Shown here piece by piece: positions 1,687 through 23,662 of a DNA stretch of 64,000 nucleotides. Under the pieces are notes generated by a model. That model did not search any database. It had not been told where the DNA came from and saw only the letters and a program-made list of their open reading frames with translations. The stretch is from NCBI GenBank assembly GCA_001574975.1, contig KQ965762.1, positions 62,001-126,000 on the forward strand, in the 5' to 3' direction. Numbering within the stretch: position 1 is the stretch's first letter; every line of letters begins with the position of its first letter. The position numbers and the translations under genes are program-made. Source of the DNA: Gonapodya prolifera JEL478 (Eukaryota > Monoblepharomycota > Monoblepharidomycetes > Monoblepharidales > Gonapodyaceae).

Positions 1687-1790
1687 ATGCCCACTTCTTT
1701 GAACGCTCGGCTGATCGACGCAATGGAAGCTGGCTGTGAGAAGGACATGAAACGGCTAATCGAGGCCAGTGGTGGATCTTGGTATGAGTT
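1687..1790 (+). pseudogene. 5' remnant of an ankyrin-family gene
   Basis: The reading starts MPTSLNARLIDAMEAG and continues to KRLIEASGGS, which is the conserved start of the ankyrin/coiled-coil/SH3 family seen in full at 2358..4055. After about 30 codons similarity ends and the frame runs into unrelated sequence. It is therefore a truncated extra copy of the gene head, in the same orientation and about 670 bases upstream of the intact gene. Confidence 0.7.
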
Positions 1791-2325: not shown

Positions 2326-2373
2326 ATGACCGGCTCTCTGAACGCAGCACTGATCAAATGTCCGTCTCTCTGA
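2326..2373 (+). promoter_or_regulatory. overlapping upstream ORF from a duplicated start region
   Basis: The start region of the following gene occurs twice. ATGACCGGCTCTCTGAACGC at 2326 is an imperfect copy of ATGTCCGTCTCTCTGAACGC at 2358, with a 32-base offset. The first ATG is therefore out of frame with the gene. It opens a 15-codon frame that stops at 2371..2373, just past the real start. If transcription begins upstream of 2326, a scanning ribosome would meet this decoy first, which usually lowers translation of the main frame. The effect is inferred; the overlap is visible. Confidence 0.5.
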
Positions 2374-4055
2374 ACGCAGAACTAATTGAAGCCGTGGAAA
2401 ATGGACGGGAAGCCGAAGCAGAATGGTTAATCAACTCAGGGGCGAGTCCAGATGCCCGGAAGAGGGTGATGTTGAGGGCTAAGGTGGAGAATGGAAGTTG
2501 GCTCTTGGGATATGACTGGAAGACGGACACTGTTGACTGTGAGAGCGCTTTAGCGCTTGCAATATTTCACGGATATGTTGGAATAGTCAGAGTGCTGCTT
2601 CAGAAGGGAGCTACGGTTGATGGCGAAGTCAACTGGAAACTCAGCAACTGGTTCTGCAATCGGAGCTGGAATTCCCATGAGTGGCAGAAAGAGAGATGGA
2701 TGTACACCTGCAGCTTCCCTTCTCCCATCACTGTTGCCATCGGACGAGGGGGGACGTGCGCGTACCTGGGAGGACACCATAGCGCGAGCGACATTCCATT
2801 CGGCACCGGAAAGATCAAGGTCAGTATGATGGGCGGCGTAGCGATCGTCAACCACCCGACAAAGTGTGAAGAGTGCGGCGATTGGTTGGCTGTTCAACCC
2901 AACTTGGAGATTCTCCGCCTTCTCCTTGCATACGGCGCACGCGTTACCAATGTCGAACTCGAAGCTGCACAGAGAAATCCGAATCCAGAATTCCTCGAGA
3001 CTCTGACGTCTCACCAACGCAGCTCAATCCCCCGGCACAACATAGCGACTTGTCCATCCCCTCTCGAAGTAGCCAATGCTTCTCACGCCAGGCAGGTTCA
3101 AGAGCTAACTCTGCACATGACATCTGCGAGGGAGGATGCGTTAGCATCAGAAAGGTGGGGCTACTTGACCCGCGCTCGACGAAATGCAGTGGTTTCTGAT
3201 TTCTATCTCAACTCGACACCAGGAAATGTGCGGACGCAGAGAAGAACATCGCGGAGTTACAAACATATATTTCTGAGCTACAGCAGGAGGTCTCCACCCT
3301 CCAGGGTCGCAACTCCGCTCTGGACCTGGAGGTCTCCTCTCTTCGTACTCTCACTTCCACCCTGGAGAAAGATAACGCTGGCCTGCGTCTTGAAATTCCC
3401 ACTCTGCGCCAGGAAAATGCATCCCTTGTACAAGAAATCGTCTCTTTGCGCCTGCAGATCGCCACCCTCCGTTCCCGAGTTTCCCCACCTCCAGAACCGA
3501 AGCCCGCTGTTCGGCCACCAACAAAAGTCCGGAAAATGATGTTCGCCATTGCAGATTACGAGCCGCGAGACGCGGACGAGATCGCCCTTGTTGCTGGTGA
3601 TGGGGTATTCCTGAATCTGGCGTTTGCCGATGGATGGGGATCGGTGCGTGCTTCATTATTCCGTCATTCTAAGAAGCTGCAATTCTTGTATTGACGCACC
3701 GCGTTTTCCACGACAGGGCTTCCATACCACAACTCAAGCATCTGGTTACTTCCCCCTCTCCTTCGTCACTTCGGTCCCACCAACACCTGGCATGCCCCCA
3801 TCAGGCGAACCGACAGCCCCACCCCTTACCACGCCCCGTCTCGAATCTCGCCCCCAGTTTGCACAACAAGTACCAATCACACCGCCCTCGTCTACTGCGG
3901 TGAGGGACGTCGTGGGGCCGCCAAGTCGAGAGGTAATTGCCAACAGTGGAATGGAGCAGGGACAGGGTACTGCACGGCGTGTAGCTTTTGCGGGGATGCT
4001 CGCAATAGTGACGAGCGAAGGAGTTGAGCTTGGAGTCGAGACGGTGGCACCTTAG
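2358..4055 (+). CDS. ankyrin-coiled coil-SH3 protein (518 aa, 3 exons)
   Basis: Exons are 2358..3154, 3223..3643 and 3717..4055 (introns 68 and 73 nt); they join in frame to 518 codons. Residues 1-90 hold an ankyrin-like unit with the family start MSVSLNAELIEAVENG and the block DCESALALAIFHG. Residues 90-190 form a family-specific insert (W-rich, GRGG, NHPTK), followed by a second unit, LEILRLLLAYGARVT. Residues about 265-380 are a heptad coiled coil rich in LRxE/STL. An SH3 domain follows: ADYEPRDADEI, GD, ADGWGS, then SGYFPLSFV. Intron 2 cuts the SH3 between GWGS and GFH. The tail is Pro/Thr-rich. Ankyrin and SH3 modules bind proteins and coiled coils oligomerise, so a scaffold or adaptor role is likely, but it is inferred. 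This is the only unbroken full-length member here; it has a decoy upstream ATG. Confidence 0.85.
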
Positions 4056-4436
4056 GAGAGGCTATGGAAGTGGGTCGAGGTTTTGGAGACGGGGAAGGAA
4101 CTTAGCACGAATAGACACAGTGAGACGACCACGTAAATCTAGAGTTCTGTACTTTTTGCAGAGTAAAATGATACACAGTTTGTGTTGTTCCCGTCGCTTG
4201 AACGTGCCACCAAAGGTGCAGAGGACAGTATCACGATGTCACGCAATTTCAGCGCCATGCATCTTGAGCCAACTTGCGATGAGTGAGCTGGAAGGGTTGA
4301 CGCGACGCATCCATCAGTGAGGGCCGGGAGAACTCCAGCAACTCTCGTTGTCGAGCTGTATATTTCTCTACGAAAGCGTCCTGCACGCACCCATTCGCAG
4401 TAGTGGCTCTCACCGCTATCACCGTGGGGCTCGATA

Positions 4437-4727
4437 CTACAGCGTATAGATGCTTGCTGAGCGTCGGCGGGAAGGCAAAGCCTTGTACACGTCGAATCGA
4501 CCGCCCCGGCGTCGGTACAGCCGTAGGCCCCCGTGGCGATTGTCGACGGGATGGCAATACATCGCAATACGGGTGAGTGTTTCAGTGGGCAGGTTGAGGA
4601 GGGGAAGCACTCGGGTGTTGTCGGGATGTGGAATGGTGGGGCATGTTGACGGCGATGGAGGTCTCTTCGCAGTCCTCCTCGGTGCCCGAGAATATAAACG
4701 AGGTGTTCTCAGAGCTCGATGTTTCAT
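4437..4727 (-). pseudogene. possible F-box protein fragment
   Basis: On the minus strand the sequence reads LPLLNLPTETLTRIAMYC, which fits the first helix of an F-box (LP.E.L..I). The frame then runs into Arg-rich, non-domain sequence and stops, and no substrate-binding region is recognisable. Neighbouring minus-strand frames give no continuation. F-box-like genes and remnants are frequent in this window (21.1, 23.6 and 30-32 kb), which makes a broken copy plausible. A chance match cannot be excluded. Confidence 0.3.
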
Positions 4728-4830
4728 TCGTGTGGTGTATTCGGTGGAAATAACTGGACATTGTGTTTTGCGTGTTTGCTCTGTCCGTGACCTCAGCCTG
4801 AGGAACGGCTGCCCACATTTTCTTTATGCA

Positions 4831-6216
4831 TTTGGCGGGATGGCGTTTCTTCAGCAGAGAAGGTTAGACGTACGGGTGTATGGCGGTCGCATACGCGTTC
4901 TCAAAGTCGGCGCATATCCCTCCTTGCAAAGATGCAGTCCAGCTCACGTGAATAAAGTCCCGATGCCATATGGTGCAGTGATTGCGGTGCTTTGATGGAC
5001 GCGAGTTGCGACAATTGACTGATGGCAATCGGCACACGAGCTTCCTACCAATGACGCCTCATCGACAAATAGATTGTTTTTTTTTGGCATTGTCATGAGG
5101 AGTTTGGCCGGCATTGCAGATGCGGCATGAGAACTTCAACGATGAAGCTTGATAGAACCTTTCCGTGCGAGGACTTGTTTTTCTTTTGTTTTTGCGTTGG
5201 GCGTGGAAGGCTATTTTGAGCCTATTGGAATCCCTGTCGATTCGCATCGGGAGTGACTACGATGGCCTTGCGGTATGGCGTATATTCTTTGGACCAAGTG
5301 GCATTGCGCTTTGGCTTGACAAGCCACGGGTCTGGTTTGGGTCATTAAGTCTACAGTGGGGCTGATTGCTCCTTGGGGCTGACTTGACATCTCTGCGCCT
5401 GCTTGTTCGTATCATGCGTAAGGTGCTCCCTTGCCACAGATACAAAAGCAAACATGTGTATTGTGTCTTCGTTTCTGTTGGGTGCCCGCAGCGACGGTGT
5501 TGTAATGTCGCTCGCAACCCTGACAACAGTTCTCACTGGGACATCTACAGTATGCTTTCGTCGCGCACAGTGGGCATACACATCGGATAATGCGGGATGT
5601 CGAGCAGCAAGTCACAGGAAGTCGGGCAAGGATGGAATGTATTCAAGACGGCAATCATTGTAAGGAAGAATCTTTTTTGTTGTGTGGGTAATGACGTGGT
5701 TGTCCTTACATCCCCCAACAAATCGCTATCTGAACGTCCGAAACGTCAGCCCCGGTTTCGGAAGAGCGGAGACGGTGGGGTGCTGAACTGAGTAAAAGAC
5801 CATGAGCTAAAAGGGGCGTGAGGAGACGGTGCAACGGTAAGAAGCGAAGTGTGACAAAGAGGAAGTGGGGAAGTGGGAAGGTGCTGAAGTTGTACGGATC
5901 AGGTGAAATGTTGTAACTTTTATTGACATAACACCATCTAGCAGCGCAAACGCAGCCAAGGAGAAAAAGGAAAAGGCGAGGTGGTGTCCTCCGACGGAAG
6001 TGGACAAGGATAAACTTACCTAAAGTGGCATATTTTCGTCGCAACAGTCCAGTGGCAAGTTCAAAGCCATGGTTTCGGGGTGCATTTGACGTGTGGGAGG
6101 ACAGGAAAGCTACAGACCTTCAGAGGATGCCTCAACTGGGGGACAGGGGCGTGCCGTTTTGAACACGGAGGCACGTACGCCACAACTCTACCCGCCGCGA
6201 CTCAACCCGGACTGCG
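4831..6216. other. no confident gene; one small Cys-rich frame
   Basis: No domain was recognised. The minus strand at 5412..5615 encodes a 67-residue frame with closely spaced cysteines (CVCPLCATKAYCRCPSENCC), a spacing that could bind zinc. No splice pattern or second exon supports it as a gene. The rest holds only short frames. Confidence 0.3.
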
Positions 6217-7044
6217 ATGGATATTTGCGCCCACGAACTCGTCCATCTCACCACATACGCAGCGCTCGGAGTGGACTTCCGCAGAACAGCGCCACAGTGG
6301 GTCGACGGGAGAGAGGATTCCCTTTCGCGAATCCATCACGCGGAGCTTGCTGCAAAAGACTCTGGCCGCGAGACGCTGTGGAAGATGAACATCGCCGCCT
6401 TTGAGGCTCTCCGCTCTCAGTCTTCCGCTCCCGTTGGAGGAATGCCCGAAGGTCCGAGGATCTTGGCTTTCTGTCGCGAAGATCCATCCCTCTTCTACCG
6501 ACAGCAATACACACCCGGTAGACGACGCGTCCGGTTTGGGACGGAGCTCCTTGATCCCTTGATCCCGGCCGACCTGTCCCGTGTCCCACACGTCCTCGAC
6601 CTTTCGCTTTACACCTCGCTCGGCATCGACTTTGACAACACCCTTCCACTCATGGCCAGTGAAGGTCAATTCAACCATGACTCGCTCACCCATGAGCAGT
6701 TCTGGTACATTGCCGGCATGAAGGGCGGATCCCGCCTTCTCTGGCAGCTTCATCTCACGCGTTTTGAAGTTGCCCAGAGAGACCAGTACTCCCGTCCCCA
6801 CTGGCTTGACGTACGTGTGCCGCACCATTCGGTCAAGATGCTTGAGGGGCTTTCGCAGAAGGAGGACTTTGGGGCGTTTGTCGTCTACTGGTATCTGGCG
6901 TTCTACGGGAGGTGGTACAATTTCCCAACAGAGAAAGCAACACGATCACTCGTGAGGGGAGTCTTGGAGGCGTTTGGGCTGCCCTGGGTCACACAAGACG
7001 AAACGTCAAAGAAACCCACCACCGGCACAGGGAAGACGACGTGA
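6217..7044 (+). CDS. hypothetical protein with two internal repeats (275 aa)
   Basis: A single uninterrupted frame starts at an ATG (MDICAHELVHLTTYAALGVD) and ends ...TGTGKTT. It contains two related units of about 70 residues, near 6-73 and 125-197. Both follow the order (H)xLxLxxYxxLGxDF, then a Leu/Trp segment (LWKMNIAAFEA and LLWQLHLTRFEVA), then QxxxxP. No known family was recognised, and no signal peptide or membrane segment is visible. Codons are GC-rich at third positions like other genes here, which supports coding. The next in-frame ATG choice is unclear because the frame is open slightly upstream. It lies between the SH3-family gene and its decayed minus-strand relatives, without an obvious link. 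Confidence 0.55.
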   Translation: MDICAHELVHLTTYAALGVDFRRTAPQWVDGREDSLSRIHHAELAAKDSGRETLWKMNIAAFEALRSQSSAPVGGMPEGPRILAFCREDPSLFYRQQYTPGRRRVRFGTELLDPLIPADLSRVPHVLDLSLYTSLGIDFDNTLPLMASEGQFNHDSLTHEQFWYIAGMKGGSRLLWQLHLTRFEVAQRDQYSRPHWLDVRVPHHSVKMLEGLSQKEDFGAFVVYWYLAFYGRWYNFPTEKATRSLVRGVLEAFGLPWVTQDETSKKPTTGTGKTT

Positions 7045-7518
7045 TTGTAAAATTTCTTGAACAGTGAAAACAGTACACAATTAGGCATCGATAAAAATCA
7101 GAATATTTAAATATCATGATACAATGTAGTTTTTCACACGAATGACACAATGAAGGGAGCGCTTTCGAAATCAACGTTCACCCTTGCGACAAGTACCAGC
7201 AAGTCACAACCCACGCCGGACACATAACGAGACAGGTCCTGCAAGGTACCTGCGAGATACCAACGTCACGTATCCTGTTCTCACCTTCGACCGCTCCCAG
7301 TGTCTCCAGCATCCTCCCTCGCCTGGATTCCAAATGTCTCCACTCCAGGTTCACCTCTCTCGCCTCTCATAACCGTCTGCACTCCAGGATGCGTCAAGAA
7401 GTTCCCTCCTTGCGCCTGTGCCTGCGTCTGAGTCTGCCCTTCCGCCATCCATCCACTCCCACCTGCCACTCCTCCAACCCGCCGTGACAGGGCTCTTGGC
7501 GGCACCGTGCCCTTGACA
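7045..7518. other. intergenic sequence
   Basis: Sequence between the convergent ends of the 275-aa gene and the broken SH3-family copy. It should contain both 3' ends; no clear polyadenylation signal or further gene was found. Confidence 0.4.
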
Positions 7519-9178
7519 CTACGTGACGGAGGGAGTGTTATTGGTGCTTGGGTGGCATATTGCGGGGGATGCGGCTGGTGGAGGTGAGGACAGTGCGGGT
7601 GAGGCAGAGCTGGGAGAGGGTCCGTCGGGTGAGACGTGGGAGAGGGGGAAGTAACCAGACGCTTGGGTTGTCGTGTGGAAGCCCTGTGGGAGATTGCGTC
7701 AGTACATGCGTGAAAGGCACACGAAAAAATGACAGTTGAACCAGAAGCTTAGACTCACCGATTCCCACTCATCCGCGTATGCGAAATTCACAAAGATCCC
7801 ATCACCAGCACCAAAAGCAATTTCGTCTGCATCGTTCGCTTCATAGTCCAAAATTATCAAACATTATCTGTCTGACCATCCTGGGTGGGCCCGTTTGGGT
7901 TGGGGCTGGTAGCTGCGAGCGGAGGGAGGTGTTTTCGGCGAGGAGGGTTACGTTGTGGGAACAGAGTGAGGTGCTTTCCTGTCGAAGTGACAAAACATCT
8001 TGGCGGAGAGTCGCGTTGTCTTGCTCCAGGGTGGAAGCGCAGGCGCGAAGGGTGGCCACCTCTTGCTCAAGCGTTTTAGTTTCCTGTTGTGAGTCCGACA
8101 TATCTTTGCTGAAGAATGTGCTGCCATGCCGCAGGGCCAAATTTCCATGCTCCAGGTTGGAGCTGCGGTTGGAAAGGATGGAGACTTCCTGGTCGAGCGC
8201 CAACGTGCGGTGGCGGAGTGACGCGACCTCGACGAGGGTGCAGGGCTCTGGTTGATCCAATCTGGAGGCGTGATTTGCGAAGAGTGGAAACCTCCCGTTC
8301 TAGCATGGAGATATGGGTGAGAAGTATTGCAGTCGCACTTTCCGCCTCTTTCAGTTTCCTAGTCAACGGGTGAAGTGACTTCAATGACGATTAAGCAAAC
8401 CCACCTCTCTGCGACTTGCGGCTTCACCTCCGCCGCAGTCGCGCGAGATTCTGCAGCCGCGATGCGCGTGCTCAGCTCCCGAACCTCCTCGGCGTGAGTG
8501 GCGGTGGCAAGTTCGAGTGGGGATTTTGGTGCAGGTGGAGTGGGCCCAGGAATTGGAATGCGTTGGTGGGAATCCAACATACGAAAGAACTCCACGTTTG
8601 CATTCGTCCTGGCTGCATCGATTTCTGTCTCGGTGACAAGTGCGCCGAATGCGAGCAGGAGACGGATGACATTCACATTGGGTTGCGTGGTGAACAAGAC
8701 TCGAATGTCATCCACCTTTCCCCTTCGATTAAGGGCGACAGCGCCGCCTGTCAGATTGATTCCAAGCTTCTCCTCGCTGTCTGTAACGTCGGACTTGATT
8801 CTGATGAAGACCGTCCTCGTCCCCCCACGACCAACAGCCACGACAAGAGCGGAAGTGAAAATGAACTTGCAATACCATCAATATCGCTTCCACTCGTACC
8901 CAGTCCACTTGCCACTGCCGCTGTAGTGGCTGATTCTCCATCCGACTTCGCCGTGGAATCTCGCTCCCTTCTCCAGCAGTACCTTCACAACTGCAGTCTT
9001 TGCGTGAAGAATCGCCAGCACCAGCACACTCTCGCAATTCACAGTGACCTCCTTCCAATCGAATCCACCGCGTCCATTGTCCACCCTGGCCGTGAGTGTA
9101 ACTCTCAGCCCGCTTCACGTCGTCCTCTCTTCCTTCCTCCACTGCTTCGATGAGTTGCGCGTTCAGAGTCACCGACAT
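7519..9178 (-). pseudogene. ankyrin-coiled coil-SH3 family copy, broken
   Basis: This has the full architecture of 2358..4055, including both intron positions. It starts MSVTLNAQLIEAVEEG at 9178. An SH3 core reads DYEANDADEIAFGAGDG, then an intron of GTGAGT type, then GFHTTTQASGYFPLSHV and a Pro-rich tail ending at 7519. Lesions: about a dozen codons are missing after DVKR, with loss of frame; an in-frame TGA replaces the residue after EWKRY; frame is lost within the coiled coil near 8250 and again just before the SH3 DYE motif near 7850. With four independent breaks it is not expected to make the full protein. It lies 88 bases downstream of, and in the same orientation as, another family member. 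Confidence 0.8.
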
Positions 9179-9266
9179 TTGGTTCCCTTATGGAGGAAAA
9201 GAGAGAGAGATTCTAACGGAGATTCCCAATTCGGTTGGAAGGGTGGGGATTGTGGTGAGTTTGCGT

Positions 9267-9980
9267 TCACGTTGTCCCGGGCGACTGGCGAGTAATGATG
9301 TTGCGCTGATGGGACAGCAATACGTTCAAGAACTCTTGATTCGGATTCGTCCGTGCGCCTTCGAGTTCCACGTCGGTGACGCGTGCGCCGTGTGCGAGAA
9401 GGAGTCGGACGATCCTTACATTCGGCTGAAGAGTGATCGCGACACAGGCATGGTCCCACTTTGTTGGGTGGTTGAGTATGACAGTGCCACCTCGTGGACT
9501 GATGTTGAGCTGTCCGTTGACGTCTGGAGTGTCGGATTTGCTTCCATAATAGTCGTTTTTCGCCTGCCCACCACACCCAAGCGCCGCAGCAAGAATAGAG
9601 GGGAAGGTCGTCGTCCAATGCCATCGCATTCGCTTCCACTCGTCCGCTTTCCACTTCTGCTCGCCGAAATAGCTGGTGTAGCCGATTTTCCGCTCGACGA
9701 CTCGGTCGACTGATGCCCCGTTCTCGAGCAGCACTCGCACGACCCCAACACGGGCATGCAGAATCGCCAACACGAGCGCACTCTCGCAGTCGGCGGAATC
9801 GTCCTTCCACTCGAGTCCGCCTCCACCGCCAAAGAGACCTTTCGGCATTTCCACCTTCGCCTTCAACGTCACCGTCTTCCGCGCGTCCGGACTCGCCCCC
9901 GCCTCGAGCAGTCGTTCGACGTCGGCCTCCCGTCCATCCTCCACCGCGTCAATGAGTTGCGCGTTGAGAGTCGCCGACAT
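9267..9980 (-). CDS. ankyrin-only family member (237 aa)
   Basis: The start was chosen at MSATLNAQLIDAVEDG (9980), matching every other family head, although the frame is open further upstream. It has the first ankyrin-like unit (DCESALVLAILHARVGVVRV), the W-rich insert with NHPTKWDH, and the second unit (VRIVRLLLAHGARVTDVE). It ends a few residues after the conserved SHQR motif. The coiled coil and SH3 are absent, and the stop lies 88 bases before the start of the next copy, so the 3' half appears deleted by the junction between tandem copies. There is no internal break, so it may still be expressed as a short ankyrin protein. Confidence 0.65.
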   Translation of the reverse strand: MSATLNAQLIDAVEDGREADVERLLEAGASPDARKTVTLKAKVEMPKGLFGGGGGLEWKDDSADCESALVLAILHARVGVVRVLLENGASVDRVVERKIGYTSYFGEQKWKADEWKRMRWHWTTTFPSILAAALGCGGQAKNDYYGSKSDTPDVNGQLNISPRGGTVILNHPTKWDHACVAITLQPNVRIVRLLLAHGARVTDVELEGARTNPNQEFLNVLLSHQRNIITRQSPGTT

Positions 9981-11115
9981 CTGCGGAAAAAAGGTATGGA
10001 CCGGGTAAATTCGCCGGAGAGTTCTCCCGCTCGCAGACCAAACGGCCAGGGACACACGGCAGGCAAAAGTGGAGTTCTCTGGGTTTGAACTCGAACTGCA
10101 TGGTGCGTGCGGTGTGCAAGTGCTTTCGCTCGCGACGGCGAGACCGCAAAATAGTTGGTTTTGTCCACTGTGGACACCCCGAACCAATCGCCTCAAACTC
10201 ATTACTGCAACACCATGTCGACCTCGTCAAGCAAGTAGGTATATTGGTCGTTTAGTGAAGAGAAGTGGGCTTGACTGCTAGATTAGTGAGAAAAATGCGA
10301 TACAGTGACTCAACCCAGTGTACTTGTATTTGCCATTGAAAAAACGACATCACGAAATTCCAATTCAGGATCAGTGATCCCATCTCCACAGGCAGGGTAT
10401 CTAATGCCAAGTTCTCCGTCCTCCCCCTCGCAATGGTCACACGGAGCGTAATATCCACAGGCATGACACATGAACCAGTTGTCTTATCGACCGCGCGTAC
10501 TGCAAAAGTACACATGAGATAACGCGGAAGTTATGCATTGCAGCCCAAGAGACGCTATGTGTCGTCTCCACACGTCAAATGGACGGAATGTCCGCTCCCA
10601 AAGCAGTCCCAACAATATAGAACTTCGCACAAGTCACACTCGAACCAAGAGCAGTACACGTCAAAAGAGCCGACCAAATGTATTAACAGACTTACACACA
10701 ACAGAGCTGTGGTAGAACTGTGATCCGGGCCACGATTCATGCACTTGGTCCCGCAATGAGTCTGCTCAAAAGCGAAACGTCACCTCTGTAATGGGAGAAA
10801 GCCGTGCCCCAATATTGTTTGTCATCCAAAAAAAATTACCCCATCGACTAGTAAAGCCCAAAAACCACCTCCGTGAAAGAAAAACTCCGCTCCTGCAGTC
10901 GATGATCGTTGAGACGTAAAAACTTTAAACACAACGTCGTGGTCAATCCTGACACCATATTGACGCCTTCAACTACGCTCTTAACGTCCACTGCATGTAC
11001 TCTTCAATGTACGATCATGTCCACATATTCCACACATCCACTCTCTTCAAATTCTTCCAAACTCGTTTTTGTTTGCGTTTTTCCACAATGGTCACTCGAT
11101 GCTCTCCGAGTTACA
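9981..11115. other. intergenic sequence
   Basis: Upstream region of the ankyrin-only gene and downstream region of the RGG-type gene. Only short frames; nothing recognised on either strand. Confidence 0.4.
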
Positions 11116-13957: not shown

Positions 13958-14544
13958 GCTGCAAAACGAATTTCAAGGGCAAACGCGTATGCAATTACAT
14001 ACCCATCAGTTCATTTGTTGATCGTTTCTTTGAGCAAAGGAATGCAAATATCCTTGAATATGAAATTCTCGATCTTCGACGTTCTCCAAATCTACAGAGG
14101 CAATACTGACTTCCACCACCGACGCAAGTCCGATTGACTCACGGACAACTCAATGATCAGGGAGGTTTAGCAGGTGGGCCTCGGCGGGTGATATGATGAT
14201 CAAGTCCGCCGATAGAAAGTACACAGTCGAATGTAAACTCAGCAATTGCAATAGACGCAATCAATCCAGCAGAAACGTGCAGCAGCAGTCCCCCAACTCG
14301 TCCCCAAACCGGTCCTCGGCCTGCGTGCCTTCGGTGGTCGGGTTTCGCCTCCGTTCGCACAAATCAGTGTATTCCCCTTTCCCTCCTGTCTCACGGCACA
14401 CAGCTAAATATACATCAAGCTGAGCCAAATAAAGCTACTCGTCACTCGAAGAACCAAACCATAGTCCGCACAGAATCAACCACTACTAAACCCAGACACA
14501 AAAACTCTTCAATCCATATCGCTCCTGCTCCATCAACATTTGTG
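13958..14544. other. intergenic sequence
   Basis: No domain or intron pattern was recognised. It may contain 5' untranslated exons of the RGG-type gene, since a 3' splice-like TTTTGCAG lies just inside 13.98 kb. Confidence 0.35.
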
Positions 14545-14724
14545 GTCCTTATCGCTTTTCACGTCGCAAGGTTGTTTCGTCCTGCCGCAGTGCCCGGTCA
14601 TTCTGCACGTGGATTATCGCATACAGGGTGCAGAGTCATTGTGTCCCAGTGTTGAGATTCCAGTGTTCAAGGTGCAAAGTTACTGGCCAAGAGCAGAGTT
14701 GCTTCCGTGCAGTGCAGAGACCAC
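14545..14724 (-). pseudogene. decayed coiled-coil remnant behind the ankyrin gene
   Basis: Directly after the stop of the next-listed ankyrin gene, the minus strand still reads VSALHGSNSALGQ, LNTGISTLGHND and, in another frame, NDRALRQDETTLRRE. These correspond to the family coiled coil (VSTLQGRNSALD, TLEKDN, TLRQE). Stops and frame changes interrupt them, and no SH3 is found beyond. The copy therefore once had the longer architecture and lost its C-terminal part by decay rather than clean deletion. Confidence 0.6.
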
Positions 14725-15408
14725 CTAAGGACCGTCAGATCCAGGTCGACTGGTTGGACTGCGTTGGTGTGACTCCAGAATTCGCAAGAACTCCGGATCT
14801 GAGCTCCTTTCAACTGCGTTAAGCTCGACGTCGGTAACGCGTGTGCCATAGGCGAGCAGAAGGCGAGCAATCTCGACGTTTGGTTGAACCGTGACCAACA
14901 CACTCCGGTCCTCAGCCTGTGTCGGGTGATTGAGGGTGACCATGCCGCCCCGCAGGTTGATGTCGAGTTTACCCTTGCGTGTTGGTCTGGGGAACGTGTT
15001 TCCGTCCCAACTGGTCAACGTCCCGCCACGTCCGATTGCCAGGGTGAGAACACTGGGGAAACTGTACGTTGCCATCCACTTCGAGTCCTGCCACGCATCC
15101 GCACTCCAATTCTGACTGCCACTGGGGCTGATTTTCCAGTCCAACTGGCCATCCACGGTCGCGCCCTTTTCGAGCAACACCATGACAACCCCAACCCAAG
15201 CGTGCACCACCGCAAGTACCAGCGCACTTTCGCAGTCCTTCGTGTCTTCCTTCCACTCGAAGCCTCCTTTTCCATCGTCCACTTTTGCACGCAGCGTGAC
15301 CCTCTTCCTCGCATCCGGACTCGCCCCTGTATCAATCAATCGCCTGACATCCGTCTCGCTACCAGCTTCCACCGCGTCAATAAGCTGCGCGTTGAGTACC
15401 GCAGACAT
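14725..15408 (-). CDS. ankyrin-only family member (227 aa)
   Basis: The start at 15408 gives MSAVLNAQLIDAVEAG, the family head; the frame is also open upstream but without similarity. It has both ankyrin-like units (DCESALVLAVVHAWVGVVMV; VEIARLLLAYGTRVTDVELN) and the insert with AIGRGG and NHPTQ. It stops soon after ESHQRSP. The coiled-coil exon behind the stop is visibly decayed. The remaining frame has no lesions, so a short ankyrin protein is possible, but loss of the partner-binding half suggests a gene in decline. Confidence 0.6.
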   Translation of the reverse strand: MSAVLNAQLIDAVEAGSETDVRRLIDTGASPDARKRVTLRAKVDDGKGGFEWKEDTKDCESALVLAVVHAWVGVVMVLLEKGATVDGQLDWKISPSGSQNWSADAWQDSKWMATYSFPSVLTLAIGRGGTLTSWDGNTFPRPTRKGKLDINLRGGMVTLNHPTQAEDRSVLVTVQPNVEIARLLLAYGTRVTDVELNAVERSSDPEFLRILESHQRSPTSRPGSDGP

Positions 15409-16144
15409 TCGATTCGGCGGCAGGAACGGTGAGAGTGGAATCGAAAGATGGTTAGGAGCGGAGACTCCTGTGCCACATTTACTGACCAAGCCATTTCGCT
15501 TGTCCAAAATTCTTCAAGCGGGGAGACTTTAGAACTATGGACATCGATGTATTTAGGGAACATCTTTTGACCATGAAATATGTAAAGCATTAAAAAAGCA
15601 CAACGCCTGTCCCTTCGATTCCGACTGGCGCGGACGAACGGAACAATAAGGGCGAGGGTGGCAGAGTGATGTTGAGACGGGCGCCGGTGGCGTGCGAGGG
15701 GAGCGGTCTGCGTCCGCCATTCGGGATACGCGCGCGAATTGGTGCACGTCCGAACGCGGGACTGTCGTCGCCGGCACCCGCACAGTCGGGGTCGAGAGGA
15801 AAGTTGGGAAACGTGGCGCTGATACAATCAGTCGCGCGGAAGATTGTTGGGTGTAAATGCGCACGATCGTGAGGTACGAGATCCGGATGAAAATATGAAT
15901 CGTGAACTCGTTGATGACTTTTAGAATTGATGACGCTGTTTGAAGGCGTACTGCAGAGACTTAGGTTTGTGTACGATTGTCAACAAAGTCTAAACTATGA
16001 ATGAACAGTATTTGATTTGGTGCCACCCCCGTCGCCGCCGGTTGGTTCACACTACCGGTCACTATTCCCTTTGATTACTAGCCAGAAGAGCAGAAACGCT
16101 GTCCGACTTGGGATTTTCAGCCTCTTTTTGCGGTGGATGTTGTC

Positions 16145-16183
16145 ATGTTTGCCAAAGAGCCTCCAATGACTTCAGGCATCAAG
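16145..16183 (+). repeat. diverged direct repeat, copy 1
   Basis: ATGTTTGCCAAAGAGCCTCC at the start of this copy matches ATGTTTGTCAAAGACAGTCG at 17152, and the match continues through (A/C)ATGAC(T/G)TCAG-type sequence. Identity is partial. No ends or coding content identify a family. Confidence 0.35.
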
Positions 16184-17151
16184 TTTTTAGCTTGTCCGAA
16201 ATAATTGTTGGATTGCGCTCCACGCTCTTAAAGTTACTTTTTTTACAGTTTGGCCTTGAAGCGGGATGCCCAGCTCGCCCTCTCTTTTGATTTGGATGCA
16301 GATGTCGATTTTGTTTCCGTAATCACCTTACAATCACGAAAGACATGGAAGGCTTTGTGCTCTCCGCACCAGACACACTTTGTAACTTTTTAGCTGCGTT
16401 TTTTCTACCTGGATTATTGATTGCTGTGATATTGCTTGTACTTGCACTCGTACGAATGCGAAGCCAGTGACGTCACCTTCACCTTTCCAAGTTATTTTCC
16501 TCATCCATGTTTTCCGATCTTCTTATTGGGTTTTTATGTAGCTCTTCTCGTATTTGAACTGCATGCAGAGAGTCTGATACTCACATTATTTTCCGACAGT
16601 TAGCTGGAATCAGTCGTGCTCCACCCAACCTCAAAACGTTTTCCCGGTACTGACATCCGCGGAACATGTGGTTGATTTCGGGACACTTGTCGCTCGGAAA
16701 TAATCGCAAAGTAATTGCGACCGGCTTCGTGATCAGATGACAGACACTTCAAACCGCGTTCCTTTCTTTCATGCAAGCGCGGGTTTCTTGTCGCCGCAAC
16801 CATCACTTCCAAAAACCAATCACGGTTTCGATACATTGATTACATTGACGGAAACTTAAAGTAACGCCATTTTTGGGATTACTTTTCAAATGCACCAGGA
16901 TGGTTGCATTAGCTACATTGTCAGCAGCGTGGATGCACTGCTATGATGCTCTTTGAATCTGAATATCCAATTTGAGAAGATCTGAAGAGCGTATAAAGGT
17001 CTACTACCACAAAAAGCGGTTCTGATCCTCGGTGATTTTCATATTATATACCCTGACGGCCACATCTCGCAATTCCCCTCGACTCCATGTCAGTTGCGCA
17101 CTGAGAAGAAGCGTGTGTCACAATTTCGGAGTTCTTTTTAGGGGGGTCGTA

Positions 17152-17190
17152 ATGTTTGTCAAAGACAGTCGACTGACGTCAGACATTAAT
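17152..17190 (+). repeat. diverged direct repeat, copy 2
   Basis: Second copy of the short repeat described at 16145, same orientation, about 1 kb downstream. Confidence 0.35.
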
Positions 17191-17542
17191 AAAAGCCCGC
17201 CCTCTTCTCTGCGTTTGCACTCCACACACTCTTCCACTTCTTTTCCTCGCTTATTGACCTATTCTGTGGGTTTGTGATACGACAATTGGCACGCGAATCT
17301 GAACCAGATGAGAAGCGACGAGAGACAATGGAACTTCAGCAGCTGGGTGTCATGCAGTAACACCATTTTACTCTGTGGAGTTAATTGAACGGAGTACACT
17401 TATCAATACCAAACCAATGGCATTACCTTCACATTGGTTCAATTCGGGTTTGAAGAAATGTCTCGTTACTCGAGTCCATTCGTTTCAACAACTCTGGCTC
17501 CCCCTTCATACAGTTCCGCACCTTACCACCGCAGGAAGGGGT

Positions 17543-18267
17543 TCACGCGGCGGCGGCGGCTCGAGTCTGCTGCATCTTCAATTCTGTGTTGCTGAGCTGA
17601 AGTGCCACGCACGGCTCCGCAAAGGCAGCACTGCGACTCTGAAGGTAGGTTTCGTTCGTCGCAAAGGTCGTTGACCGCCGAGGAGGATTCAAATGAGTGT
17701 CCTGAGTGTCGTGTCGCGTCAAGTACGCCATGAGTTCAAAGGCGAATCCCAAAAAAACCTCATGATTCAGCGCTTCTTTCCGCTGCACCTCCTTTCCAAC
17801 ACCTTTAATGCGCGCTTCGAGCTCCTGAACTTGTGCCGCTAGTATGGCAGTAGCACGTTCACGTTCCAAGGCCCGCTGGTGAGACTCCCGCCCCGTCCGA
17901 TGGCAGCGGAGAGAACACTGGGGAGACTGCACGCTGACCACCACCGTTCGCGATTCCACTCGTCGCTCGTCTCAAGCCTCACTGCCATGCCAGTGGCTGA
18001 TTCTCCATCCGACTTCTCCCCCACCTTCGCCAGCAACACCTTCACGACACCAATCTTTCCATGAAACACAGCCAGCGCCAGCACTCTTTCACAGTCGATG
18101 GAATTGGTCCTCCACGCGAATCCGCTGCGTCCATCGTCCATCTTCGCCTTGAGTGTCAACCACATCCGGGAATCCGGGCTCGCACCGAACTCAATCAACC
18201 GCCTCACGTCCGCGTCTCGCCCGACCTCCACCGCGCTGATAACCTGGGCGTTGAGAATGGATGTCAT
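17543..18267 (-). pseudogene. ankyrin-coiled coil family copy with internal deletion
   Basis: Starts MTSILNAQVISAVEVG at 18267. The first ankyrin-like unit is present up to AIGRGG. The sequence then jumps, out of frame, to the end of the second unit at SHQRALERERATA, so the whole second ankyrin unit is missing. The following coiled coil (LAAQVQELEARIKG, then YLQSRSAAFAEP) closely parallels the C-terminus of the copy at 19968..20963, and there is no SH3. The out-of-frame deletion means the two halves cannot be read together. A MITE-like element lies 57 bases upstream of its start codon. Confidence 0.75.
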
Positions 18268-18323
18268 TCGTCGTTTGGAGAATCGGAGTGTGTGGTGCAA
18301 AATGATGGGGATGTACAATGGCG

Positions 18324-18887
18324 GGTCTCAAAGTTAAATAGCAAGCTTGCTATTTGCTTGCTATTGGACCCTTTGCTATTTCGGTAAAAGGTTTTTGCGA
18401 AATAGCAGGTTGCTATCTTGAGAGCGAGGTAAAAAGGTCACTAACCTCGTGCTATCTGTGCCTCATTGCTATCTTGAGCTCCTCGACACCAAAAGAACCA
18501 ACGCGTCGTTGAAACTTCAATCAAATGATAAACAGCTTGTAGACTCTGTGAATCGTGGTTGCCGCCAGAAGCTCGGCGGAAATCGAGCGAAATCAGCCTA
18601 TTGTATACCATCGTCACGTTAAATCGACGTAGCTGGACACCGCGGCAGTCGGAGCAGACGTGGGACGATGGTATCGACTCGAGTACCTACTTTCGCGTGT
18701 GATTATGGTTGCGGGGGGGCCTGTGTTCAACATACTACCCGGACATGGAGCAATTTGGGACGTTCGATGTCATCATGTTTTGAGACATCTTTTGGAGGCG
18801 CGCTTTTGCTCACTATTCAGGGAAGTCCGAGGTAGCAAGAGGGTCCAATAGCAAGAAAATAGCAGCTTGCTATTTAACTTTGAGACC
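18324..18887. mobile_element. MITE-like element with long terminal inverted repeats
   Basis: The left end GGTCTCAAAGTTAAATAGCA is repeated in inverted orientation at the right end. The inverted similarity continues for about 50 bases through TTGCTATTGGACCCT with a few differences. The left repeat contains a perfect 20-base palindrome (18336..18355, AAATAGCAAGCTTGCTATTT), and the right repeat has a 19-base version. The internal 450 bases have no coding frame and repeat TTGCTATCTTGAG twice. The size (564 bp) and lack of a transposase indicate a non-autonomous DNA element. No convincing target-site duplication is visible, so the superfamily is open. Confidence 0.75.
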
Positions 18888-19230
18888 TACCAATTATGGA
18901 GCCGCTGCACCTTCACTACCACCCGTGCTCGCACTTCCAGTGTCCATCGGTTTCGGAAGCTTCGACCGGTGCTCACTCCAGTCACTCCTCCAGTTCGTAC
19001 TGCACTAGTTACTGTCACATCCGGCGTCGCCATCAACTACCCGCGGCCGCCCTTCTCGAACAACAAACACCTTCACAACAGGAGCGTCCTTCCCGTACAG
19101 CTGTCAAGCAAAAGAACATTTTCACAATCCATGGAACTTTTTCCCGGCTCTGATTTTTAAACTTCTTCCTCATTGCGATTCGACTTGCGACTGACGTCGA
19201 CTCTTGAATCTTTTTTTGATTGCATGATAG

Positions 19231-19563
19231 TTTTTGAACCCTGGATTCTATCGGGGCACTACAAACGAGTACCGTTCTCTCGTGGACGACTGCGACATGG
19301 ACGCGGCCTTTGAGTAGGGGGGGAACGTGAGCAAGAAAACTCTGGACTGAGTCTTGACCGTACGGTCTCTCTTGCAGAAGGTAACATGGCAATTTTGCGA
19401 TCCGCCCAAGGAACCCTGGAACTCGCGTCACCTGCAACCTAAAGCCCTTCGTGATGGGTCGGAAGCCCTTGTCGCGAAACTTATTGACCACAAGGACAGT
19501 GACTTAGTGCAAAAGGCCTTTGCGGGTTTGTTCTCTATCAATGCGGCCGCGACGTCTATTTAG
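19231..19563 (+). pseudogene. 3' fragment of a Baeyer-Villiger-type monooxygenase gene
   Basis: It corresponds to the last two exons of the intact gene at 31971..34936: LNPGFYRGTTNEYRSLVDDC parallels NPGFYPGTTNEYRSLLEDC, and WQFCDPPKEPW parallels WELPDPPKEPW, ending at the TAG at 19561. The intervening intron is still present (GTGAGC...TTGCAG), so the copy arose from DNA, not from mRNA. A TAG replaces the Tyr codon of FEYGEK. The upstream part of the gene is absent. Confidence 0.8.
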
Positions 19564-19967
19564 TCGCACAGTGTAAATGCTATATGAGTTGTTCAAGAGC
19601 TGGCAGCATAATGAAGATTGTATTATATTCATAACAAAGTCCAAACACAACTCTGCGTCACAAACTCCCCCAATGCAGTACGCTGTACACTTGAAGTGCC
19701 ACAGTTTAAGCCTCTCCTGGCTCCACGCTCTACCCCACATTCCCGTCTGCAAATGCGTACCATCCTGGTTGAAGACAAACTCTTATAGATAGCTCGCGTC
19801 AAATTATCGCAGCAGGTACCGTGGTGGGTCCAGTATTAGCTGGAGTCTCTGGCAGAGTCCCGCGTTCCATGTATGCAGCGCAGAATCGTCCGGCTCCTGA
19901 CTTAACAAGGCTACATGACAACAACTTTTGCAAAGTTCCATATTGTGCCAACACCAGGTCAGATGAA
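19564..19967. other. intergenic sequence
   Basis: Sequence between the monooxygenase fragment and the convergent ankyrin/coiled-coil gene. It contains presumed 3' ends and no recognised feature. Confidence 0.4.
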
Positions 19968-20963
19968 TCACGTTGTGAATCCAGCTCGTGCCCTCTTTAG
20001 TGCGGTGTTGCGGTCGCGAAGTGCCACATGCCGCTCTATGATGACAGTGCTGCGGCTTTGGAGGTAAGTACTGTTGTACACAAACATCGATAAGCGCCTG
20101 GAAGGATGTGAACATGTGTCGTGAGTAGCTGTCTGATTCTAGTTGTGCCTTATAAAGGCCGACTTACCGCACCTAAACCAAACAACTTACGAGGTTACCT
20201 CCTGGTTGACATCTTCCTTCTTCCGCACTTCCCTTTCCACAAGCGCAATGCGCATGGTGAGCTCCTGCAGCTGTGCGGCGAGAGCGATGGTGGTAAGCTC
20301 AAGCTGGATCCGCTGGTGGTGGGCCTCCAGGGTAGTGAAAAACTCTTGGTCAGGATTCTTGCGGGCGGCATTCAGCTCCGTTTCGGTGATGCGGGCACCG
20401 TGCGCGAGCAGTCGGCGGACAATCTCCATGCTCGGGCGAACAGTGTGCGTTACATAGACGTCGGGCCGTTTCTCAGGATGCGTGATCGTCACCGCACCGC
20501 CTCTGATGCAGATTTCGAGGTTCTTGTTGCTATTCGGGCTGTCGTATACCCGTCCGTCCCGGTCCGTCCACTTCCCGCCTCGTCCAACAGCCAAAGCCAG
20601 CGGACTAGGGAAGCTGAACGTTGAATACCACCGCCGTTCTTCCCATCGATCACGCTTCCAGTTCTTATCGCTGTAGTAGTTGCTGATTTTCCACCGGACT
20701 TCGCCATCGACCGCCGCGCCCTTCTCCAGCAACACCTTCACGATGGCGACGTTCCCGTGTAGTATGCCAAGCGCCAAAGCACTCTCGCAATCGACAGAAT
20801 CCTCCATCCAGACAAATCCGCCCCGTCCATCTTTCACCTTGGCGCGCAGTGTGACCCTCTTCCTCGCATCGGGGCTTGCTCCAGCCTCGATAAGCCGTTT
20901 GACATCCGCCTCGCGCCCGGCTTCCACTGCGTCAATCAGCTGTGAGTTCAGAGTGGTCGACAT
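19968..20963 (-). CDS. ankyrin-coiled coil family member without SH3 (300 aa, 2 exons)
   Basis: Exons 20191..20963 and 19968..20097 are joined through a GTAAGT donor and TTCCAG acceptor (93-nt intron), giving 300 codons in frame. The start is MSTTLNSQLIDAVEAG. It has a first ankyrin-like unit (DCESALALGILHGNVAIV), the W-rich insert (RWEERRWYSTFSFPSPLALA) and a second unit (MEIVRRLLAHGARITETE). A short coiled coil follows (LAAQLQELTMRIALVEREV) and an extension with YLQSRSTVIIERHVALRD. There is no break, so this is the best-preserved short form. It is divergently arranged with an F-box/ankyrin gene 117 bases away, sharing the intergenic promoter. The role is unknown; the modules suggest protein-protein binding. 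Confidence 0.8.
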
Positions 20964-21080
20964 TCGCTAAGGTAGCGGGAGCAGTGTGGTGAGGGAAGAT
21001 TGCGCCTCTTGGTGGAACGATTCAGCCCGATAAAGTGTTGCTTGTGTCCATAACGACCAGTTTTCTGCCGGCCCTGCGAG

Positions 21081-22281
21081 ATGGTTTCCATAGCTGATTT
21101 TCCCCTTGAGATTCTAATCCGAATCGGGCAATTCCTTCCCGGACGTCTTGGCTCCCTCTCAACCACAAATTCCGAGCAATCCTCGGGAGTCCCGTTGAAA
21201 TCGCCCATAGGGCTCTCTCCCACTACGGAGCTGCGAAGGCTCTTGTTGAAGAGTCACGAAGGCCAGGGACAGATGGCGAGGTCGTCCGTGTGCTTCTGAG
21301 AAATCGCCGTGTTAGAGAGTCGATCGACATTCAAAGACCGCATCCAGACCACAAAACCGCGCTCATAGCAGCGGCTCGAGCTGGAAATGCAATCGTTTGC
21401 GAAGTCCTGCTAGACGCTGGCGCGAATGCCTCCATAAAACCCCAGTATTGCCAAAACAACTATTGCTTGGAGTCGCTGTAGTTCTTTGTCTTCGGTACCA
21501 CTGCCATATGTTATGCTGCAACGGGCGGCCACGTAGACGTTGTTGACGTTATGGTGGCGAAGGGCGGACGTTCGTCAAAGGAAAAGGATGAAGCGCCATG
21601 CGGGAAAATCGCGTTGCTGTTCCGAGAATGCTTTTTCATTGAGGAGCAAAGGTTGACCAGGACGCATATCGCAGTATTGTGCGACAAGGTCATGTTGAGA
21701 TGGTGGACCTGTTGGTTCAGTACGGGGTGGAGTTACCTGTTGGACGTCGAGATATCGAACCCCTCACGCATGCTGCGAGCTTGGGTCATGGGGATATTGC
21801 GGATATTCTGCTTAAGGCCGGGGCCGACCCGAACACAAATAATGGGCTTCCACTCCTGGAGGCCGCGAATGCAGGCCATGCTGATATCGTTGAGACTCTT
21901 TTGAACCATAGCGCAGATGTGCACGTCCAGGGTGATCGTGCACTGCTTGACGCTGCCGAAACAGGCTGGCTGGATGTAGTGACACTGCTCCTGAACCGTG
22001 GAGCAGATGTGCACGCCCAAGGCGATCGCGTCCTCCTGTGCGTAGTTGAAATGGGCGCACGTGAGCATCGTCACAACGTTGGTACTTGGTTTGACCCGCT
22101 AAAACATCGAAGAGACCATTTCAAGGTTGCGGAGCTGCTGTTGCGGCGAGGTGCCAACACCACCGTGACGGATACCCTCGGTCGCACGCCATTGGATATT
22201 GCGGCAGAGTATAATCATTCAACACTTATTAATCTGCTTTGCGCTATACAATCTCGAAGTGAAGAATTTCTCGCGCTCTAG
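21081..22281 (+). pseudogene. F-box/ankyrin-repeat gene, broken
   Basis: The start MVSIADFPLEILIRIGQFLP is an F-box N-terminus. The second F-box helix (LNHKFRAILGSPVEIA) continues in a different frame, so a frameshift lies near 21150. Ankyrin repeats follow: HKTALIAAARAGNAIVCEVL, then ATGGHVDVVDVMVAKGG in another frame, then GHVEMVDLLVQYGV through five typical repeats to LGRTPLDIAAEYNH and the stop at 22281. Three frame changes and a stop after 21480 separate the segments. F-box/ankyrin proteins usually serve as substrate receptors of SCF ubiquitin ligases. Unless the frame changes are sequence errors, this copy would not make an intact receptor. Confidence 0.75.
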
Positions 22282-22542
22282 TGTATTTTTAACAATATAA
22301 CAGATATCTCGACTATAGTCTCGACGCTTGAATACTAATCGATTTCTTGTCGCCCTGGACGACCAACCCGCGACCGCCCTTTCGAAAAAGCACCTCCCGA
22401 CGTGTACGCACCGTCCCGGCGTGCGTTCAAGGTCACGAGTCCAGCTGGCCTCCACCACCGCTTCACGCCATCAGCTCGCTTGCTCCTCCGCTGGGTGCTT
22501 TCCTTCTTCCGCACCTTGCTCCTAAAATTACTCCTGTTCCCA
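22282..22542. other. short intergenic stretch
   Basis: Convergent 3' ends of the F-box/ankyrin and ankyrin/coiled-coil copies. No feature recognised. Confidence 0.35.
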
Positions 22543-23533
22543 TCACCACCTGGACTTCACGCCATCTGTTGTCGCAGCAAAAACATTCTCCTGACGGAGG
22601 GTCGCGGCCGCCTGCATTAGAGCGGCAATGTCGTGTTTGAGCGATTCAAGGTCACGTTCCAGGGTGGAGGTACGGCTGCGAAGTGTAGAGACCTCCTGCT
22701 CCAGAGCGGAATTGCAGATTTGTAACGCGGCGGCATTTGTCTCCGCTTCCACGCATATCCTGGTGAATACACCGCCGGTGAAATCAAAAGCAAGTTTCGA
22801 CGCAAATGCAGTTCCGCCTACATCTCTGCAATCCGTGCCCTCTCCTCCTCCGCACTGCAACACGTGCGGCGAGTTCCAGTACCTGCATGGCGTGCTCAGC
22901 ATTTGCGAGTTCGAGAGGTGGAGGCTTTGAACTAGCCGGTGCAGAGCGAGGTATTGGGCTACGCTGGTGACTCCAGCGTGTGCAGGAATTCTCGGTCGGG
23001 ATTCTTTCTCGCTGCGTCCAGTTCCACGCCAGTGACAAGGGCGCCGTACGCGAGCAAGAGACGGACGATCTTCACGTTTGGCCGAACGGCGAACAGGACA
23101 CTGCACTCTTCCCACGTTGTCGGGTGATTGAGTGTGACTTCGCCGCCTCTCAGATTGATTTCGAGCTGCCCGTCGTTATCTGGACAATCGACCGTGTCTC
23201 CATTCAGCACTGCTTCCTTCCCGCCACGACCAATGGCAGCGCCGCAGTCGTTGCTGAGTCGCCATCCGACTTTGCCATCGACGCTCGCTCCATTCTCTAG
23301 CAGCACCCGGACAACCGCCACCAGTCCATGTAGCACTGCAAGAATCAGCGCGCACTCGCACTCCACCGTATCTTCCTTCCAATCGTACCCGTCACGCCCG
23401 TCCTCCACCTTTGCCCTCAGCGTCACCGTCTTGCGTGCATCGGGCTCGCCCCGGACTCAATCAACCGTTTCACATCGGCCTCCCGCCCATCCTCCACCGC
23501 GTCGATCAACTGAGCGTTCAAGGTCGCCGACAT
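22543..23533 (-). pseudogene. ankyrin-coiled coil family copy, broken
   Basis: Starts MSATLNAQLIDAVEDG at 23533. One base is missing in the SPDARK motif (near 23447), and frame is lost again at the SHQR motif (near 22985). The W-rich insert between WRLSN and AIGRGG is also deleted. The second ankyrin-like unit (VKIVRLLLAYGALVTGVE), the conserved intron acceptor CACCAG and the coiled coil (LQICNSALEQEVSTLRSRTS) remain. The frame then ends at 22543 without an SH3. It is paired head-to-head with an F-box remnant at 23631. Confidence 0.75.
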
Positions 23534-23630
23534 GTTCCTTGGTCTCGGAAGTTCGCGCTTTCAATAATCAACCTGGCCCGGATTTTAGCCGTGGAGATTA
23601 TTACCGCCTATTTTCTGTCTTTCCGGCGAC

Positions 23631-23662
23631 ATGATTTCCATCGCTGATTTCCCCTGAGATTG
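23631..23662 (+). pseudogene. remnant of an F-box gene start
   Basis: ATGATTTCCATCGCTGATTT matches the start of the F-box/ankyrin gene at 21081 (ATGGTTTCCATAGCTGATTT). One T is missing shortly after, giving an immediate stop, and similarity ends within 35 bases. Its position, about 100 bases from a divergent ankyrin/coiled-coil copy, mirrors the arrangement at 20963/21081. Confidence 0.65.

What the first reader, a model, noticed from the sequence alone, without database searches (positions are those of the whole stretch)
2358..23662. An expanded gene family joining ankyrin units, a coiled coil and an SH3 domain
Eight or more copies or remnants share one head (MSxxLNAQLIDAVExG), one W-rich insert inside the ankyrin region and conserved intron positions. 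The full form ends in an SH3 domain split by an intron. I know of no named family with this order. Expansion and different C-terminal truncations in one 22-kb cluster suggest rapid turnover, as seen for recognition or adaptor proteins. The function is inference.
Basis: partly seen in the sequence, partly recalled or inferred. Interest (0 to 1): 0.75.

Follow-up and report, generated by a model that had tools for sequence, protein, structure and literature searches.

The report
Expanded ankyrin, coiled-coil, SH3 scaffold family
A fungus that seems to have flagella carries dozens of copies of a gene that joins an unusual ankyrin domain, a leucine-zipper-like coil and an SH3 domain, a combination we could not find described, and the copies look conserved rather than racing to change.

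Summary
The window has seven ANK heads and a head remnant; the 2358 copy is a complete three-exon gene (2358-3154, 3223-3643, 3717-4055; 518 aa) for ANK, leucine-zipper-like coil, SH3 and Pro-rich tail. The cluster is a corner of a genome-wide family: 150 listed ANK matches merge to 132 loci on 58 contigs, and 46 of 118 family-type SH3 matches follow an ANK match within 2.5 kb on the same strand. Of the 30 best loci, 25 are stop-free over the ANK match and 13 have a spliceable SH3 with its intron at one position. The order also occurs in distant members. AlphaFold gives ankyrin helices with long hairpins. Rapid turnover is not supported: dN/dS is 0.24-0.38 in the 12 closest of 300 pairs, and 4 of 6 groove positions are nearly invariant. 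Best reading: cytosolic oligomeric scaffolds with a shared ankyrin ligand and SH3-recruited partners; function is inferred. Six paper searches listed no such family, but fungal proteomes could not be searched.

The parts
2358..3154 (+). Exon 1 of the one complete gene: ANK domain with W-rich insert, linker, start of coil
   Evidence: AlphaFold model of residues 1-265
3155..3222 (+). Intron 1 (GTGGGG...CACCAG), phase 2
   Evidence: same junction with donor and acceptor in 5 other loci
3223..3643 (+). Exon 2: leucine-zipper-like coil (11 of 15 Leu in one heptad register, reached by 0 of 20000 shuffles) and the first part of the SH3
3644..3716 (+). Intron 2 (GTGCGT...CGACAG), phase 0, inside the SH3 after DGWGS
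3717..4055 (+). Exon 3: rest of the SH3 and a Pro-rich tail
   Evidence: no Pfam match for this piece
1687..1767 (+). Head-only remnant (59% to the 9980 head)
9267..9980 (-). Copy stop-free over the ANK domain, stop 9 residues after it; the next head begins about 90 bases on
7759..9178 (-). Broken copy: part of the head missing, stop in the ANK part, coil and SH3 remnants in shifting frames
14725..15408 (-). Copy stop-free over the ANK domain, stop 10 residues after it
17884..18267 (-). Broken copy: first half of the ANK domain in frame
20187..20963 (-). Copy stop-free over the ANK domain plus a helix; no SH3 found in the 1.5 kb held downstream
22585..23533 (-). Broken copy: head and rest of the ANK part in different frames, W-rich part missing, coil remnant

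Best explanation
The finding is one complete member and several truncated or broken members of a large, old family of scaffold or adaptor proteins in a fungus that appears to be flagellated. Shown: an N-terminal ankyrin domain with long hairpins and an extra W-rich insert; a heptad-repeat coil; a C-terminal SH3 split by an intron at one position in 13 of 30 loci; the same order in distant members; purifying selection. Inferred: the protein stays in the cytosol, pairs or oligomerises through the coil, holds a ligand common to the family with its conserved ankyrin groove and W-rich insert, and recruits proline-rich partners with the SH3. Copies without the SH3 would be shortened partners or competitors that mix with full-length ones through the coil or share the ankyrin ligand.
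For: Spliced 518-aa product. SH3 by Pfam, 3 of 6 spliced domains above cut-off, and PDB relatives: vinexin 5.6e-5, Nbp2 8.6e-5, p47phox 3.3e-6 summed over its two SH3 domains. Ankyrin fold: designed ankyrin proteins are the best Foldseek hits of both models (5e-4 and 7e-5). 46 of 118 SH3 matches follow an ANK match within 2.5 kb on the same strand, 10 lie on the wrong side (tandem arrays), 7 on the other strand; chance about 0.4. Seven distant members, chosen because both matches lay together, show ANK, a coil by eye and an SH3 that leaves frame at the same residues. dN/dS 0.24-0.38 in the 12 closest of 300 pairs; first SH3 exon median pS 0.81, pN 0.23 in 13 copies. Groove positions by the ankyrin register (recalled): E14 25/25, L70 23/25, H71 24/25, G129 22/25; positions 15 and 130 vary. 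W93, W109, R113, W114 in 23-25 of 25 and in 6 of 6 distant members. The highest 19-residue hydropathy mean, 1.81, lies in an ankyrin helix, not at the N-terminus; no signal-peptide program was run.
Against: No expression, binding or localisation data. Synonymous sites are near saturation, so dN/dS is rough. The ALYDY-type motif reads AIADY, so one usual ligand-contacting aromatic is missing (recalled rule; p47phox also reads AIADY). A self-ligand for the SH3 in the ANK-coil linker is not supported: PxxP in 7 of 27 linkers against a shuffle mean of 11.8; class I motifs 4 against 2.1 (260 of 2000 shuffles reach it), class II 2 against 2.2. AlphaFold confidence is moderate (71.4, 76.6) and under 50 at 139-178 and 146-174; the SH3 and the coil were not modelled. 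72 of 118 SH3 matches had no listed ANK match beside them; of seven such loci fetched, five show at least part of an ANK domain and two show none. At least 3 of the 46 paired SH3 matches carry a stop.
Confidence: 0.55

Rival explanations
1. A recognition or allorecognition family under diversifying selection, with the ankyrin domain reading variable ligands.
For: Many copies; 20 merged loci on C44 and 12 on C32; C44 begins with telomere repeats; broken copies; variable positions beside the invariant RW of the insert (112, 115, 116); a weak pull to contig ends over 16 contigs (KS P 0.05).
Against: Purifying selection over the ANK stretch, 4 of 6 groove positions nearly invariant, mostly old copies. 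10 of 16 best hits per contig lie within 50 kb of an end, 7.5 expected; on the 14 contigs over 150 kb 8 against 5.6, P 0.14; six distant members show no such pull.
Confidence: 0.15
2. Effector-like proteins acting outside the fungal cell.
For: Expanded ankyrin genes occur among effectors of some microbes (recalled).
Against: No hydrophobic N-terminus by hydropathy; coil and SH3 conserved as in cellular adaptors; lifestyle of the organism unknown.
Confidence: 0.07
3. Mostly non-functional duplicates carried along by tandem and segmental duplication, with few working genes.
For: 3 of 7 window heads are broken; SH3 absence is scattered over the tree; homology upstream of the start in two pairs among 30 loci.
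Against: 25 of 30 best loci are stop-free over the ANK match, about 225 codons in most, at near-saturated synonymous distance; the 12 copies without SH3 are not more diverged than the 13 with it (mean identity 0.56 and 0.54). The 30 were the best hits, which favours intact ones.
Confidence: 0.2

Closest known systems
ASPP family (53BP2, iASPP; recalled)
   Same: Ankyrin repeats followed by an SH3 near the C-terminus
   Different: In ASPP the SH3 packs directly behind the repeats; here a W-rich insert sits in the ankyrin part and about 150 residues with a coil lie before the SH3
SHANK and CASKIN (recalled)
   Same: Ankyrin repeats before an SH3; scaffold role
   Different: PDZ and/or SAM domains follow there; no Pfam match after the SH3 here
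OSTF1 (recalled)
   Same: One SH3 and ankyrin repeats
   Different: Opposite order, no coil
Nbp2 (yeast SH3 adaptor)
   Same: Its SH3 is a sequence relative in the PDB search
   Different: No ankyrin domain (recalled)
Ankyrin expansions in anaerobic gut chytrids (PMC8778642, passages seen)
   Same: Proteins with an ankyrin domain expanded in an early-diverging fungal group
   Different: The passages seen speak of transporter-database ankyrin families; no coil or SH3 order is mentioned in them

Membership tests
SH3 domain superfamily | Match to a curated SH3 profile | tested here: met
   Above cut-off in 3 of 6 spliced family domains; the window copy is below it, 27.2 of 30 bits (SH3_9) and 20.2 of 22.9 (SH3_1); PDB relatives
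Ankyrin repeat superfamily | Match to a curated profile, and fold | tested here: met
   PF00023 1.2e-8, 35.2 against 21.1 bits; Foldseek to designed ankyrin proteins
ASPP family | SH3 directly behind the repeats (layout recalled) | tested here: not met
   About 150 residues with the coil lie between
ASPP family | p53 binding | not testable with these tools
   Needs a binding experiment
SHANK family | PDZ domain after the SH3 (layout recalled) | tested here: not met
   No Pfam match at E 1 in the exon 3 product of the 2358 gene
A described fungal family with the order ANK, coil, SH3 | Named in print | tested here: inconclusive
   Searches: none in the listings (one search listed 20 of 26); most subscription papers are not held and no fungal proteome could be searched
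Viral or prokaryotic origin | Relatives in those collections | tested here: not met
   48 pattern matches in viral contigs, no relative; one archaeal ankyrin match of 54, 30% over query residues 4-107

The most novel reading that the evidence does not exclude
An undescribed, ancient scaffold family built from a new ankyrin variant (ankyrin with W-rich insert) plus leucine zipper plus SH3, with at least 46 loci that pair ANK and SH3 (some broken) and many SH3-less partners, so that mixed oligomers could wire different SH3 partners to one shared ankyrin ligand: a combinatorial adaptor system in zoosporic fungi.
Probability: 0.35. Interest if true: 0.65.

Novelty: new variant of a known kind. Interest (0 to 1): 0.45.

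Why it matters
Ankyrin and SH3 domains are ordinary, but this order, the W-rich insert without a Pfam match, and the number of copies point to a large uncharacterised adaptor repertoire in an early-branching type of fungus. It gives a clear signature (head, W93, W109, RW113-114, SH3 intron after DGWG) with which other fungi can be searched.

Tried and rejected
Open frame of 3673 aa at C44:125761: it reads into a run of N, not a gene. SH3 binding its own linker: PxxP rarer than in shuffles. Subtelomeric location as a rule: weak, not significant on long contigs. Viral or bacterial origin: no support. NCBIfam: one weak TRP-channel match far under its cut-off. The tree inside the expanded clade is mostly unresolved (2 of 29 inner branches well supported), and three distant rows (L042, L043, L047) were badly trimmed at the head there. 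Rows left out: 5 of 30 loci (four with stops, one cut by N) and in the conservation and identity counts; L047 also, as a near-copy of L043; the linker test used 27 of 30. The pairing used the 150 listed rows of 164 ANK matches, and only 150 of 350 candidates were scored. The seven distant members were chosen because an ANK and an SH3 match lay together.

Full report
Setting. The window is G000:C32:62001-126000 of a 47.6-Mb genome in 207 contigs. It looks like a fungus with flagella: Zn2Cys6 and fungal transcription-factor domains in the window; a chitin-synthase profile with 36 matches, the best 2.6e-176 (that profile also rings in 4 of 14 bacterial controls, so only the strong matches count); an IFT46 match in three pieces, none in the controls; TTAGGG arrays, several at contig ends. 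The species was not identified.

Observation. tblastn with two heads finds seven copies and one remnant in the first 24 kb (read). The 2358 gene splices cleanly into 518 residues: ANK about 1-220, linker, coil about 267-348, SH3 371-423, Pro-rich tail. Intron 1 is phase 2; intron 2 is phase 0 and inside the SH3. Three other copies are stop-free over the ANK domain and end soon after; three are broken.

Domain evidence. Pfam finds ankyrin above cut-off in exon 1. Two AlphaFold models, built from window paralogues only (4 and 7 rows; pLDDT 71.4 and 76.6), show ankyrin helix pairs, a long hairpin at 34-63, strands and a short helix in the W-rich insert, and an uncertain stretch at about 139-178. 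The best Foldseek hits are designed ankyrin proteins with TM near 0.4 by query length: the fold is ankyrin, but much of the chain is extra. Residues 97-174 have no Pfam match. The SH3 matches solved SH3 domains and Pfam SH3 profiles.

Family in the genome. A search with the 9980 head gives 164 matches, 150 listed; its weak end may hold generic ankyrin genes. The 150 merge to 132 loci on 58 contigs, 20 on C44 and 12 on C32. An SH3 consensus gives 118 matches; 46 follow an ANK match, 29 of the best 40 among them; at least 3 of the 46 carry a stop. Pfam SH3_1 itself has 148 matches in the genome, so SH3 domains are common here in general. Of the 30 best ANK loci, 25 are stop-free over the match, 4 carry stops and 1 runs into N. 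Of the 30, 13 have both SH3 exons with GT-AG ends at one position and introns of 63-89 bases; a fourteenth first-exon match there belongs to the neighbouring broken copy.

Depth. Seven distant members, 34-45% identical to the query head, were fetched because ANK and SH3 matches lay together. Each shows ANK, a coil by eye, and an SH3 that leaves the frame after DGW(G/A)S; splicing was not worked out for them. One (L042) carries two ANK modules. Of seven SH3 loci without a listed ANK match, five show at least part of an ANK domain by tblastn and two (L048, L049) none; these two have a Pro/Ser-rich head in its place.

Evolution. In 25 stop-free ANK stretches, median pS is 0.67 and median pN 0.28; the 12 pairs of lowest pS give dN/dS 0.24-0.38. 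The 2358 copy and C44:72 kb are a recent pair, with homology upstream of the start. SH3 presence changes about 8 times on a poorly resolved tree. Repeated loss is the likelier direction, but the distant members were picked for having an SH3, so this is not shown. Four of six groove positions and the W/R positions of the insert are nearly invariant; the 11 most variable positions lie mostly in the insert and the long loops. This speaks for a shared ligand and against variable recognition.

Mechanism. A conserved ankyrin head, a coil and an SH3 are the layout of a multivalent scaffold. The coil has a strong Leu heptad register, so dimers or mixed oligomers are likely but not shown. Self-binding of the SH3 to the linker was tested and not supported. 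What the head and the SH3 bind is unknown.

Known families. ASPP, SHANK, CASKIN and OSTF1 (layouts recalled) share ankyrin and SH3 but not this order with a coil between. Six paper searches (listings and abstract starts seen; passages of one paper, PMC8778642) showed no such family. That is weak evidence of absence.

Against my calls I mended the identity range of the distant members, stated how they were chosen, replaced 'more than 46 genes' by 46 loci of which some are broken, re-ran the ANK check on the seven unpaired SH3 loci, and lowered the observation verdict to partly confirmed because the window alone cannot show conserved introns. The odds did not need changing.

Verdict. A real, large, uncharacterised family; the local cluster is ordinary tandem growth of it. 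Interest is moderate: a new arrangement of known domains, function open.

Noticed in passing
window 21054-22281 +: A different, ordinary ankyrin-repeat gene, with an F-box-like start by eye, lies inside the cluster; its ankyrin part matches Ank_2 at 2.6e-26.
   Followed up: partly
L048 and L049 (G000:C98:166600-169300, C17:24050-26800): Coil-SH3 genes of the same family whose N-terminal part is Pro/Ser-rich; no ankyrin match by tblastn in the stretch fetched.
   Followed up: partly
L042 (G000:C67:54900-57600) and L052 (C54:195100-197700): Members that seem by eye to carry two ankyrin modules before the coil and SH3.
   Followed up: no
window 54557-55340: A hAT-transposase-like stretch by eye next to a run of N; no Pfam match at 0.001.
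   Followed up: partly
L039 (G000:C44:123500-133000): A run of N that begins inside an ankyrin copy makes a false open frame of thousands of codons.
   Followed up: yes
L043 and L047 (G000:C81:137500-139900, C94:147600-149900): Nearly identical distant members on two contigs, both of which hold further ANK-SH3 pairs: a recent segmental duplication or two haplotypes.
   Followed up: no
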